64,000 nucleotides of DNA from Owenweeksia sp. Its GTDB lineage: Bacteria > Bacteroidota > Bacteroidia > Flavobacteriales > Schleiferiaceae. Shown in pieces: positions 50,261 through 53,945 of the stretch. Where the stretch lies: the NCBI GenBank assembly GCA_002695025.1, contig NZNV01000007.1, positions 1-64,000 of the forward strand, written 5' to 3'. Made by a program: the position numbers and the translations under genes. How positions within the stretch are numbered: the stretch's first letter is position 1; the number at the start of each line of letters is the position of its first letter. Below the pieces are notes generated by a model. The model was given only the letters and a program-made list of their open reading frames with translations. It had not been told where the DNA came from and made no database searches.

Positions 50261-50422
50261 TAATAAATTGAAGTATATACTTAAATAAGGCAGTCTTATT
50301 TAAGAAAAATGACCTAATGCTTAAATAAAGAGAGGGTGGATGGTTCACCCTTGGGGTGAGATGCCATCGCCATTTTGGATAATCGCTTTAACTATCCTCT
50401 TATAAATCCGGGAAGGATATAG

Positions 50423-50445
50423 CGGTGTAGTTACAAACTACACCG
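50423..50445. repeat. REP-like palindrome at the left side of the AT-rich island
   Basis: CGGTGTAGTT (50423-50432) and AACTACACCG (50436-50445) form a perfect 10-base stem with loop ACA. It is followed by GAGGGAGGG. It lies in the 611-base gap 50001-50611, which otherwise contains AT-rich DNA, the degraded remnant at 50073-50260 and the dyad at 50553-50601. Confidence 0.6.
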
Positions 50446-50552: not shown

Positions 50553-50601
50553 TTTAAACTCATCATTAATTTTTGTAAAATTGATGATATAAGAGTTTAA
50601 A
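50553..50601. promoter_or_regulatory. Large nested dyad upstream of the DUF4062-HAD gene
   Basis: Outer arms TTTAAACTC (50553-50561) and GAGTTTAAA (50593-50601) are perfectly complementary. Inner arms ATCATTAA (50562-50569) and TTGATGAT (50581-50588) match in 7 of 8. The right arm ends 10 bases before the ATG at 50612. It could be an operator for the HTH domain encoded downstream, or a hairpin that hides the translation start. Confidence 0.6.
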
Positions 50602-50611
50602 TCTTTTGAAT

Positions 50612-52192
50612 ATGCCATTTCCTCGTGTTTTTGTAAGTTCAACCTATGTAGATTTAGTAGATGCTAGGGATACAGTAACTAATTGCCTAGAGAACCTCAA
50701 AGCCAAACCTATTGTATTTGAGCGGTCGGGAATAAGTTATGATCATTCTAAACCTATGGATCTTTCCTGCTATGAATCCGTTAAAGAATGTGATATGGTT
50801 GTCTTAATAATTGGGGGTCGCTACGGAAGCTCATCTTCTAATCCAAACTCGTCCACAAATGGACTAACAATCAACTCGATAACTAAAACAGAATATTTAG
50901 AAGCTCTTGCAGCTAATATAAAAGTATTAACCTTTATTAAGGAATCTGTTCTTTATGAATATAGCACATTTAAAAATCAAACTAAAGCCCAACAAAAGAA
51001 TTTCAAACCTACTTACGTAGACAATCTCGCTATTTTTGATCTTATAACTGAAATTCATCAGCTAAAAAAAAATAACGCAATATATCGCTATCATAAAGCA
51101 TCAGACATTGAGGATGTTATTCGAAAAGAATTCTCCTTATTAGCTCAACAGGCACTTAAATCTAGCAGAAATACTCAATCCGAAAAAAAGGTATTAATTA
51201 ATGCCTACAAAATGTTCTATTATCGCAGGCAAGGTCAAATATCACTAACTAAGCTTAGCAGTATAACGAGACTAAAACGAAATTTTATATCTAGTCTTGA
51301 GAAAGTAAAAAATATAAAAAAGGAAGATAATCCTGATAAATTACCATTTAGAATGTGCGAGCTATCAGATCTTAAAAATATTGAACGAGCCTTAAATTGT
51401 GAAAATGAACTAGAAGTCGGCAAAGAAGATGATCTTCTGTCGCACTATATCAACTACTACCATTGTAACAGGGGCAAACAACCTGCTACTAAAACCAAGG
51501 CCCACAATGAGCAAATACATTTTCCAAAAAAGGCTGTAGTATTAGATTTTGATGGCACTATGACCACTAGAAATAATCGAACCACATGGGAAATGTTATG
51601 GGTGAATTTAGGCTATTCCATTAATGAATGTAACTTATATCACCGGCAGTATAGTAACAAACTCATATCCCACGAACAGTGGTGCAGAATTACTAAAGAG
51701 AAATTCCAAGCTCAAGAACTATCGGAATTAACTCTTAATTCAGTTGCTTCTGAAATTGATCTCGTAGATGGAGTTAAAGATCTTGTTGAGATATTAAACA
51801 AAAATAATATTGAAATTCATATTCTATCAGGTTCGGTTGAACAAATAATAACAAGAGTATTAGGCCCAGTACTTACCAAGAAGTTTACTCACATTCAAGC
51901 CAACAGTTTTAAGTTCACAAACAATCAGCTTTCTCATATCCAAGGAACTCCATACGATTTTGAAGGTAAAGCTACATATATTACCAACTTACTTAAAGAT
52001 CGTGGTTATAGTCCACAGGAAGTTCTTTTTGTTGGCAATTCAAGTAATGATAAATGGGCCAGTAGATCTGGAGCCGTAACATTGTGTGTCAATCCGCATT
52101 TTACAGATGGAACTGATATTAAAGAATGGTTATACTGTATTAGAGAAATGGATAGCTTAATGGAAATTTTAACATATATTCCACTGAGCTAA
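50612..52192 (+). CDS. DUF4062-HTH-HAD phosphatase fusion protein
   Basis: 526 residues in three parts. Residues 4-112: DUF4062, a TIR-like domain (RVFVSSTYVDLVDARD, FERSGISYDHSKPMDLSCYE, CDMVVLIIGGRYGS, SITKTEYLEAL). Residues 198-280: an HTH of Cro/XRE type (MFYYRRQGQISLTKLSSITR, then FISSLEK). Residues 307-510: a HAD phosphatase of the SerB-like IB group with all four motifs: DFDGT (Asp312, Asp314), LSGS (Ser406), Lys453, and GNSSND (Asp480). No membrane segment or NTPase. Codon use and base composition are far more AT-rich than in the flanking genes, which suggests acquisition. DUF4062 is often found in anti-phage NTPases; here a phosphatase takes that place. The ATG at 50612 is chosen over TTG 50606. 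Confidence 0.85.
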   Translation: MPFPRVFVSSTYVDLVDARDTVTNCLENLKAKPIVFERSGISYDHSKPMDLSCYESVKECDMVVLIIGGRYGSSSSNPNSSTNGLTINSITKTEYLEALAANIKVLTFIKESVLYEYSTFKNQTKAQQKNFKPTYVDNLAIFDLITEIHQLKKNNAIYRYHKASDIEDVIRKEFSLLAQQALKSSRNTQSEKKVLINAYKMFYYRRQGQISLTKLSSITRLKRNFISSLEKVKNIKKEDNPDKLPFRMCELSDLKNIERALNCENELEVGKEDDLLSHYINYYHCNRGKQPATKTKAHNEQIHFPKKAVVLDFDGTMTTRNNRTTWEMLWVNLGYSINECNLYHRQYSNKLISHEQWCRITKEKFQAQELSELTLNSVASEIDLVDGVKDLVEILNKNNIEIHILSGSVEQIITRVLGPVLTKKFTHIQANSFKFTNNQLSHIQGTPYDFEGKATYITNLLKDRGYSPQEVLFVGNSSNDKWASRSGAVTLCVNPHFTDGTDIKEWLYCIREMDSLMEILTYIPLS

Positions 52193-52233: not shown

Positions 52234-52578
52234 TCAGCACAACACCACTACTGTTTTTACTACCCCCCACAACCGCTCAAACTCCCGCTCATAGGCCTTA
52301 AAAGCTTTGGTATCATTTAGCACAATCACGTTCTCATAATTATGATCCGCAGCAGAGCGGGTCCAGTTGTAGCTACCGGTTAAAAGGTAATCATCGTCAA
52401 AGAGGGCAAATTTGTGATGCATATGTACACTGGTACGGTCTTCCACCACTTTGATCCCCGACAAAGCCAGGCGGTCAATGTCGGAGCCCAGATCAGCGGT
52501 TTTATCATTATCGGTGATAATGCGGATATCCTTCCCTAGGCGGTGCGCCAGCAACAGCTCGTCACTGATTTTTTGAGC
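52234..52578 (-). pseudogene. Phospholipase D-like (PLDc_2) gene, N-terminus missing
   Basis: The C-terminal part of a small PLD-family nuclease/hydrolase: KISDELLLAHRLGKDIRIIT, then DLGSDIDRL, the HKD motif HMHHKFALFDDD, and LLTGSYNWTRSAADHNYENV. Intact single-domain members have about 60 more residues before this point, including the first strand and helix. Here the frame is closed by a TGA at 52579-52581, and the DNA upstream belongs to a different, AT-rich membrane-protein gene. The only possible starts are TTG codons. The HKD half that remains is complete, but without the first strands the fold should not form. Confidence 0.78.
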
Positions 52579-53041
52579 TCAATGAGATCATTGATGATGT
52601 AAAAACAATTATAATCACTTCTATAGTAAGAAGGAAAATGACCCCCCACTTCAGGTTCGTATCGAAAAAAAATTTAATCAGCAAGGGGATATAAAAAAGC
52701 ACAAGATTATACAAACTACCAAAAACAGCTCCCATACCAGCAGTCTCAGATATATCGTCATCTTCTTCCTCTTTATCTTCTTTTTCATCCTTCTTTTGAT
52801 CAGAATTCCTTTGGCTATTATTATCCTCACTAGATACTAAAGTCGATAAAAAACTATTAATAAGCCAAGGAGGTCCTGCAATTGATATCGATAAGATCAA
52901 TACATAACCAAAATTATATGTTGATGCCAAGTCAGGTATGAACATATGAATAAATAATAAGCCCGGTGGAATTACAGAGATGAGCACACAGACAGCGAAG
53001 AAAATGCTAATTCCCTTAAGATTAGAAAAGCTAAAGTTCAT
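52562..53041 (-). CDS. Small multi-pass membrane protein
   Basis: 159 residues with four hydrophobic segments (about 9-32, 44-66, 104-121, 130-152) and a highly charged cytosolic loop between the second and third (SEDNNSQRNSDQKKDEKEDK). No family recognised. AT-rich like the DUF4062-HAD gene, and it ends inside the open frame of the truncated PLD gene (17 bases of overlap), which suggests the two were joined by rearrangement. It may be an accessory protein of the island. The 130 bases upstream contain AGTATACTTCT and AGAAGTATACT as an inverted pair (53059-53069, 53129-53139). Confidence 0.65.
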   Translation of the reverse strand: MNFSFSNLKGISIFFAVCVLISVIPPGLLFIHMFIPDLASTYNFGYVLILSISIAGPPWLINSFLSTLVSSEDNNSQRNSDQKKDEKEDKEEEDDDISETAGMGAVFGSLYNLVLFYIPLLIKFFFDTNLKWGVIFLLTIEVIIIVFTSSMISLSSKNQ

Positions 53042-53171: not shown

Positions 53172-53945
53172 TTAGCCCTGACGATTTTTAAGCGTACGCA
53201 CTTCGTTCTCCAATTCTCGCAGGCGCAAACGGAAAGCATCCGGGTTACCAATATTTTTAGTCACCACCAAACACACCTGCCATACTCTTTGAACCTCTTT
53301 AGAGGCTACGGTGACTTGGTAATGATCGGGATGAAGTGGTTCCAATACAAGATTGCTCAGGTTTTTAGCATTCAGCCTGCGGTAATACAATTGCTTCCTG
53401 GTTTCAAAGATGTAGAGCTTACTGCTTTCCACTTGGTTCAGGTCAAACTTATCCGGGCGGCAGCCCACCACTACATCTTGTTTACCGGCTCCGGAACCGT
53501 GGTACACCATAGCATCATCGTTCAGCTCAAAAGCCCGGTAATTCATGCCCTTTAGGAGAGGTAGCTGGATTACCGGCAAAACGGACGATTTAATTTCTCC
53601 GGCCAGGTAAGCCTGCTGCTCGGCCTGTGACACATAAGGCACCGGGATAATATCCACCGGTACTTTGGAAGGCGATAAATTGTGCTTCACCTCCCCGGCC
53701 AGCTCTTCCTTAAAGATGTCGAAACGGGAAAGATCGTTCACGGAAAGCTCCTTGGTGAGCAGGTCATCTATACTAATGCCAAAATGATTAGCAATTTGTA
53801 GAACAGTAGCTATTTTAGGTTCCGCCCTACCCTCTTCATACGAGCCAATACTGGCCCGCTTCATATCGAACAAGTCCGCAAAGTCACTCTGACTAAGGTT
53901 TTTCACGCCCCGTATTTTCTTTATATTGGTTCCGATCACTGACAT
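53172..53945 (-). CDS. XRE-family regulator with S24/LexA-like C-terminal domain
   Basis: 257 residues. The N-terminal Cro/CI-type HTH (about 6-62) reads IKKIRGVKNLSQSDFADLFD and MKRASIGSYEEGRAEPKIAT. The C-terminal domain (about 95-220) resembles the S24 peptidase-like domain of phage repressors (VPYVSQAEQQAYL, GRAF-like ELNDDAMV), but a catalytic Ser-Lys pair is not evident, so it is probably a sensing domain. A short coiled end follows. Its promoter region holds a dyad, in keeping with autoregulation. Base composition is normal for the chromosome. Confidence 0.85.
   Translation of the reverse strand: MSVIGTNIKKIRGVKNLSQSDFADLFDMKRASIGSYEEGRAEPKIATVLQIANHFGISIDDLLTKELSVNDLSRFDIFKEELAGEVKHNLSPSKVPVDIIPVPYVSQAEQQAYLAGEIKSSVLPVIQLPLLKGMNYRAFELNDDAMVYHGSGAGKQDVVVGCRPDKFDLNQVESSKLYIFETRKQLYYRRLNAKNLSNLVLEPLHPDHYQVTVASKEVQRVWQVCLVVTKNIGNPDAFRLRLRELENEVRTLKNRQG

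What the first reader, a model, noticed from the sequence alone, without database searches (positions are those of the whole stretch)
50612..52192. DUF4062-HTH-HAD: an apparently new three-domain effector in an AT-rich island
Seen: a full DUF4062 domain, an internal Cro/XRE-like HTH and a HAD phosphatase with all four motifs (DFDGT, LSGS, Lys453, GNSSND) in one 526-residue chain, in DNA much richer in A and T than its surroundings. Known: DUF4062 is TIR-like and is often joined to STAND or other NTPases in anti-phage proteins. Inference: this may be a one-gene defence or nucleotide-signalling module in which DUF4062 senses or makes an NAD-derived product and the HAD domain removes a phosphate, with the HTH controlling expression. 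I know of no described system with this order of domains.
Basis: partly seen in the sequence, partly recalled or inferred. Interest (0 to 1): 0.82.

Follow-up and report, generated by a model that had tools for sequence, protein, structure and literature searches.

The report
NAD-cutting defence-like protein with phosphatase tail
A Bacteroidota bacterium carries a recently acquired gene that joins a domain type now known to destroy NAD during phage attack to a DNA-binding-type domain and a phosphatase-like domain whose metal site is altered, a very rare combination that is probably a one-protein antiviral alarm with a new kind of trigger.

Summary
Window 50612-52192 (+) encodes one 526-aa chain: DUF4062 (Pfam 8e-19), an XRE-like helix-turn-helix and a HAD-IB (SerB-type) domain, at 33.7% GC against 47.8% for neighbouring genes. 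The architecture is real: a full-length homologue (37% identity, all three domains) exists in Taibaiella lutea. It is very rare: none was found in about 1,290 further Bacteroidota genome searches, nor elsewhere in one pattern-limited scan of 85k species. A sister species has the same locus without it, so it looks acquired.

DUF4062 is no longer unknown. A 2026 preprint (PMC13174449) shows that it is a TIR-like NADase, founding the Swarozyc anti-phage system. Our Glu94 aligns with its catalytic Glu97. The HAD domain is not a complete phosphatase: the motif IV Mg2+ aspartate is Asn476, also Asn in Taibaiella and Glu in a separate TIR-HAD fusion that I found, but Asp in all 27 comparators. In SerB2 this Asp-to-Asn change cuts kcat/Km about 12-fold.

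Best reading: a single-gene NADase effector of abortive-infection type, with HTH plus HAD as sensor or regulator. Shown: domains, homology, rarity, acquisition, altered motif. Inferred: NADase activity here, defence, sensing. A new variant of a known kind.

The parts
50612..52192 (+). Complete gene, 526 aa: DUF4062 - XRE-like HTH - HAD-IB
50612..51166 (+). DUF4062 TIR-like module (residues 1-185; Pfam match 5-97), predicted NADase domain
   Evidence: PF13271 8e-19; about 190-aa module shared with 80 loci; model fold matches DNPH1/NDT Z 14.4 and SARM1 TIR Z 12.0
50891..50893 (+). Codon of Glu94, predicted catalytic residue, invariant in 42 DUF4062 sequences
   Evidence: aligned to the mutated position (E97A) of the KpSwz structure
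51200..51406 (+). XRE/Cro-like helix-turn-helix region (residues about 197-265)
51530..52171 (+). HAD-IB (SerB-type) domain, residues 307-520
51545..51559 (+). HAD motif I DFDGT (Asp312, Asp314)
52034..52051 (+). HAD motif IV GNSSND; Asn476 replaces the usual Mg2+-binding Asp
50553..50601 (+). Long imperfect inverted repeat just before the start codon: candidate operator or leader hairpin (not conserved in Taibaiella)
   Evidence: z -4.3
52234..52554 (-). Truncated PLD-family gene (106 aa), remnant at the synteny break; intact 230 aa in the sister species
53172..53945 (-). XRE regulator gene, syntenic in the sister species; conserved edge of the insertion region

Best explanation
A horizontally acquired, single-gene NAD-cleaving effector of the DUF4062 (Swarozyc-like, TIR-like) kind, probably acting by abortive infection. 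The N-terminal domain would hydrolyse NAD+ through Glu94 once molecules are brought together. The C-terminal HTH plus HAD would be the regulatory and sensing part: the HAD domain keeps its nucleophile (Asp312), Ser406 and Lys453 but has lost a Mg2+-binding Asp (Asn476), so it should bind a phosphorylated ligand, or form a long-lived phospho-state, better than it turns one over. Binding of an infection-linked ligand or phage protein there would switch on the NADase. Shown: architecture, conservation in a second species, catalytic Glu alignment, altered motif IV, recent acquisition. Inferred from a described relative: NADase activity and phage defence. Inference only: the sensor role of HTH-HAD.
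For: DUF4062 proteins are NADases and Swarozyc gives anti-phage abortive infection, with an HTH/winged auxiliary domain binding the phage portal (PMC13174449). Glu94 and Ser9, Ser10, Thr11, Asp14, Arg19, Ser89 are kept; Glu94 aligns with E97A of the KpSwz structure. Two full-length homologues 37% identical, HAD the best conserved part (43.5% against 32.2% for DUF4062 and 28.2% for HTH). Motif IV Asp replaced by Asn, Asn and Glu in three TIR/DUF4062-linked HADs, Asp in 27 of 27 others; Asp-to-Asn there leaves MtSerB2 with residual activity (kcat/Km 0.0187 to 0.0016; PMC4270767). Independent canonical TIR-HAD fusion in a Chitinophagales genome. Low GC, absent from the sister species at the same locus. 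Taibaiella copy lies beside a ThsB-type TIR gene (380 bits) and an FtsK/SspH-like gene.
Against: No phage or NADase test exists for this architecture. The human DUF4062 proteins NWD1, NWD2 and NPHP3 showed no NADase activity, so the domain does not guarantee it. No known defence system was found near the window copy. The strong conservation of HAD motifs I-III could equally mean that catalysis is retained. DUF4062 modules of the pair sit on long branches, so function may have drifted.
Confidence: 0.45

Rival explanations
1. The HAD domain is a working phosphatase that processes the NADase product (for example ADP-ribose phosphate from NADP+, or a nucleotide monophosphate) or destroys a signal, making a two-step NAD/nucleotide-consuming effector or a self-limiting switch.
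For: Motifs I-III intact; HAD is the best conserved domain; profile matches phosphoserine phosphatase over the whole domain (E 1e-15) and cytosolic 5'-nucleotidase III in part; HAD 5'-nucleotidases are reported in ADP-ribose-processing neighbourhoods (PMC9503650); TEP1 DUF4062 makes ADP-ribose phosphate from NADP+; an independent TIR-HAD fusion exists.
Against: A Mg2+ ligand of motif IV is Asn or Glu in all three fused HADs, and Asp-to-Asn there leaves about 9% of kcat/Km in SerB2.
Confidence: 0.25
2. The DUF4062 domain here is not an NADase but a nucleotide N-glycosidase like DNPH1 or MilB, and the HAD removes the phosphate: a nucleotide-pool or modified-nucleotide sanitising or depleting enzyme.
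For: The predicted domain fits DNPH1/NDT structures best (Z 14.4 against 12.0 for SARM1 TIR); from general knowledge both families use a catalytic glutamate; HAD 5'-nucleotidase similarity.
Against: The described DUF4062 proteins with activity use NAD(P)+; DUF4062 as a family has similarity to both TIR and NDT folds, so the fold score does not discriminate; KpSwz was not among the fold matches listed.
Confidence: 0.13
3. The HTH is a true DNA-binding domain and the protein is an autoregulated toxin: it represses its own promoter at the inverted repeat 50553-50601 and is released by infection or ligand binding to HAD.
For: XRE-type profile similarity; long inverted repeat directly upstream.
Against: HTH is the least conserved domain (28%), degenerate in this copy and without a Pfam hit; the Taibaiella upstream region has no comparable repeat.
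Confidence: 0.12
4. Housekeeping metabolic phosphatase that happens to carry extra domains.
For: HAD-IB/SerB similarity.
Against: Absent from close relatives and from the syntenic locus, low GC, altered motif IV, SerB equivalog cut-off far from met (44.6 of 144 bits), no metabolic operon.
Confidence: 0.05

Closest known systems
Swarozyc (KpSwz; PDB 10wc, 11cq, 11cv), PMC13174449
   Same: N-terminal DUF4062 TIR-like domain with the aligned catalytic Glu; one-gene layout; C-terminal auxiliary part that includes an HTH-type fold
   Different: KpSwz is 326 aa in the solved form, with a helical stalk and an HTH/winged AUX domain and no enzyme-like domain; ours has an XRE-like HTH with little stalk and a 220-aa HAD domain
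Taibaiella lutea DUF4062-HTH-HAD protein (L087:8001-9566)
   Same: All three domains, 37% identity end to end, same motif IV Asn
   Different: Lies beside a ThsB-type TIR gene and an FtsK-like gene; uncharacterised
TIR-HAD fusion of a Chitinophagales genome (L171:964-2163)
   Same: Related HAD (24% identity over 196 aa, E 8e-19 in a two-sequence comparison) fused to a TIR NADase-type domain; motif IV also altered (GEGFND)
   Different: Canonical TIR_2 instead of DUF4062; no HTH; orphan gene
HAD-IB phosphoserine phosphatase (SerB, M. jannaschii PSP 1f5s)
   Same: Fold and motifs I-III
   Different: Motif IV Asp missing; different cap sequence (TTWE..W..LGY); below the SerB cut-off
DNPH1/NDT nucleotide N-glycosidases
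   Same: Fold of the DUF4062 domain (Z 14.4)
   Different: About 12% identity; different substrate expected

Membership tests
Swarozyc / DUF4062 TIR-like NADases | DUF4062 domain | tested here: met
   PF13271 68 bits, cut-off 24.7
Swarozyc / DUF4062 TIR-like NADases | Catalytic glutamate (E97 in KpSwz) | tested here: met
   Glu94 invariant in 42 sequences and aligned to the E97A position of KpSwz
Swarozyc / DUF4062 TIR-like NADases | KpSwz-like C-terminal auxiliary HTH/winged domain | tested here: inconclusive
   No significant sequence match outside DUF4062; model of this region is of low confidence
Swarozyc / DUF4062 TIR-like NADases | NAD+ hydrolysis and abortive infection triggered by a phage protein | not testable with these tools
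   Needs an experiment
HAD-IB phosphatase (SerB-type) | Motifs I (DxD), II (Ser) and III (Lys) | tested here: met
   Asp312/Asp314, Ser406, Lys453
HAD-IB phosphatase (SerB-type) | Motif IV acidic Mg2+ ligand (GDxxND) | tested here: not met
   Asn476, also Asn in Taibaiella; Asp in 27 of 27 comparators
HAD-IB phosphatase (SerB-type) | Curated SerB equivalog score | tested here: not met
   44.6 bits against 144.15
XRE/Cro HTH | Profile match above a curated cut-off | tested here: inconclusive
   No hit in this protein; below cut-off in the homologue; two-row profile finds XRE repressors in PDB at E 0.0036
Defence-island gene | Known defence genes nearby | tested here: inconclusive
   No system among the proteins scanned around the window copy; ThsB-type TIR and SspH-like gene beside the Taibaiella copy

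The most novel reading that the evidence does not exclude
A recurrent, undescribed class of immune proteins in which a TIR or TIR-like NADase is governed by a repurposed HAD domain with an altered metal site. The HAD acts as a phospho-ligand sensor or timer rather than a housekeeping phosphatase, and it was joined to DUF4062 (with an HTH) and to canonical TIR in separate events.
Probability: 0.3. Interest if true: 0.7.

Novelty: new variant of a known kind. Interest (0 to 1): 0.52.

Why it matters
DUF4062 has only just been shown to be an NADase family shared between bacterial phage defence and the human vault protein TEP1, and how its members are triggered is known for one case only (phage portal). 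A DUF4062 protein whose trigger part is a HAD domain with a conserved change at the metal site would be a new sensing logic, possibly for a metabolite rather than a phage structural protein, and the separate TIR-HAD fusion suggests that the pairing is not an accident. The gene is a single ORF, so expression with E94A and D312N mutants tests it directly.

Tried and rejected
Close relatives by single-protein scan of viral contigs: none. Scans of viral contigs with the full-length pair and with a HAD alignment: none; a wider HAD alignment had no searchable stretch. Full-length homologues in 395 Bacteroidota, 99 relatives, 398 Chitinophagales-level and 396 genomes of the Taibaiella family (sets that overlap in part): only Taibaiella itself. 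TIR-HAD relatives in the family of its host: none. Plasmid and phage records: DUF4062 part only. SerB genes with ACT domains that match the HAD profile were set aside as housekeeping. Prophage origin: nothing phage-specific beyond unknown-function PHROGs over DUF4062, no tRNA in the window, no Rfam match. Assembly or fusion artefact: rejected by the Taibaiella homologue with the same domain joints. A second structure model of HTH-HAD alone was poor (mean pLDDT 50), so its fold hits (SerB/HAD) are only consistent, not proof. A tree of DUF4062 modules does not place the pair firmly together or apart (p-AU 0.29 for one clade, long branches). KpSwz did not appear among the fold matches listed; the library ends in April 2026.

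Full report
WHAT IS THERE. Window 50612-52192 (+) is one open frame of 526 codons. Pfam finds DUF4062 at residues 5-97 (E 8e-19, nearly the whole model) and a HAD hydrolase at 307-480. NCBIfam places the HAD among the HAD-IB, MtnX-like and SerB groups without reaching any cut-off. The middle (about 197-265) gets no Pfam hit by itself. The same region of the homologue matches HTH_3 and HipB-type models weakly, and a profile of the two finds almost only XRE-type repressors among solved structures (best E 0.0036). The gene has 33.7% GC and 26% GC3, about 4.2 and 4.4 standard deviations below the other window ORFs.

IS THE ARCHITECTURE REAL. One scan of 84,980 species genomes with a DUF4062-derived pattern returned a full-length homologue in Taibaiella lutea, matching residues 1-525, 37% identical with the domain joints in register. 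The other 79 loci matched only about residues 1-190 (a few slightly further). Their proteins are mostly 310-390 aa, with coiled-coil-like stalks and small C-terminal parts, as in viral-contig relatives. The scan used a single pattern that matched 195 stretches, so further homologues may have been missed. Searches of 395 Bacteroidota, 99 relatives, 398 genomes of the Taibaiella order and 396 of its family found no third full-length copy. HAD is the most conserved part of the pair (43.5%), then DUF4062 (32.2%), then HTH (28.2%).

HOW IT GOT HERE. A sister species of the same genus is collinear with the window from about 52267 onward. There the XRE gene is followed by an intact 230-aa PLD-family gene and then unrelated genes, with no DUF4062 gene. 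In the window the PLD gene is cut to 106 aa next to an inserted small gene (52562-53041), and the DUF4062 gene ends 42 bp from the PLD remnant. With the base composition, this makes recent acquisition at a variable site likely.

WHAT DUF4062 DOES. A preprint of May 2026 (PMC13174449) reports that DUF4062 is a family of TIR-like NADases. Klebsiella KpSwz defends against phages by NAD+ depletion, needs Glu97 and its auxiliary HTH/winged domain, and is switched on by the phage portal. It also says that some DUF4062 proteins carry additional enzymatic domains, without naming HAD in the text I could read. Here Glu94 is invariant over 42 sequences, and in a profile alignment it falls on the alanine of the E97A KpSwz structure (the chain position counts as 84, which would be residue 97 if the construct starts one residue before 15, my count). 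Ser9, Ser10, Thr11, Asp14, Arg19 and Ser89 are also kept. The predicted domain (pLDDT about 90) fits DNPH1/NDT structures (Z 14.4) and the SARM1 TIR domain (Z 12.0). The preprint notes similarity to both folds, so this does not separate NADase from nucleotide N-glycosidase.

THE HAD DOMAIN. Profile search hits M. jannaschii phosphoserine phosphatase over the whole domain (E 1e-15) and part of cytosolic 5'-nucleotidase III; the model fits HAD phosphatases at Z about 11 despite lower confidence. Motifs I-III are intact. Motif IV is GNSSND here and GNSLND in Taibaiella: the Mg2+-binding Asp is Asn. All 27 comparator HAD proteins gathered during this work have Asp. In M. tuberculosis SerB2 the same Asp-to-Asn change (D341N) lowers kcat/Km from 0.0187 to 0.0016 in the paper's units (PMC4270767), and the paper says that replacing the corresponding residue by Asn in another phosphoserine phosphatase or in Ca-ATPase abolishes the phosphoenzyme.

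A SECOND, SEPARATE FUSION. A Chitinophagales genome encodes a 399-aa protein with a canonical TIR_2 domain (E 1.5e-20) joined to a related HAD, E 8e-19 against ours in a two-sequence comparison. Its motif IV is GEGFND, also without the usual Asp. It is an orphan among housekeeping genes. That HADs with an altered metal site are joined to two different NADase-type domains is the most interesting lead here, but it rests on three sequences.

CONTEXT. No known defence system was found among the proteins scanned around the window copy. The Taibaiella copy follows a ThsB-type TIR gene (380 bits to PADLOC) and an FtsK/SspH-like gene. A long inverted repeat lies at 50553-50601, just before the start codon (z -4.3), but Taibaiella shows none, so autoregulation is only possible.

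VERDICT. Most likely a one-gene NADase effector with HTH-HAD as its control part; sensor-type HAD 0.45, working phosphatase 0.25, nucleotide N-glycosidase 0.13, autoregulated toxin 0.12. It is a new variant of the DUF4062/Swarozyc kind, not a member in full: the auxiliary domain could not be matched and activity is untested.

Noticed in passing
L171:964-2163 (same gene at L213:8163-9362): TIR_2 domain fused to a HAD-IB domain with motif IV GEGFND, an undescribed-looking fusion that parallels the DUF4062-HTH-HAD protein.
   Followed up: partly
window 52234-53041: PLD-family nuclease gene cut to its last 106 aa next to an inserted AT-rich stretch that carries a small predicted membrane protein; the sister species has the intact gene.
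   Followed up: partly
window 50278-50302 and 50423-50445: Two further short inverted repeats with 10-bp arms (CTTAAATAAG/CTTATTTAAG and CGGTGTAGTT/AACTACACCG) in the long ORF-free stretch upstream of the gene.
   Followed up: no
L031:421-1803 (same genome, another contig): A second, only distantly similar DUF4062 protein of 460 aa in the same genome, of a type also seen in L008 and L012 with a long conserved C-terminal region.
   Followed up: no
L098:7992-9224 (Methanosarcina): DUF4062 protein whose C-terminal part looks by eye like a phosphoribosyltransferase (VLCISHGSLNG..., IDYKIETGRTA); Pfam gives no hit there.
   Followed up: no
L039, L113, L128, L152 and many others: A large subgroup of DUF4062 proteins ends in a strikingly conserved acidic tail D-D-D-x-P-F, possibly a protein-interaction signal.
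   Followed up: no
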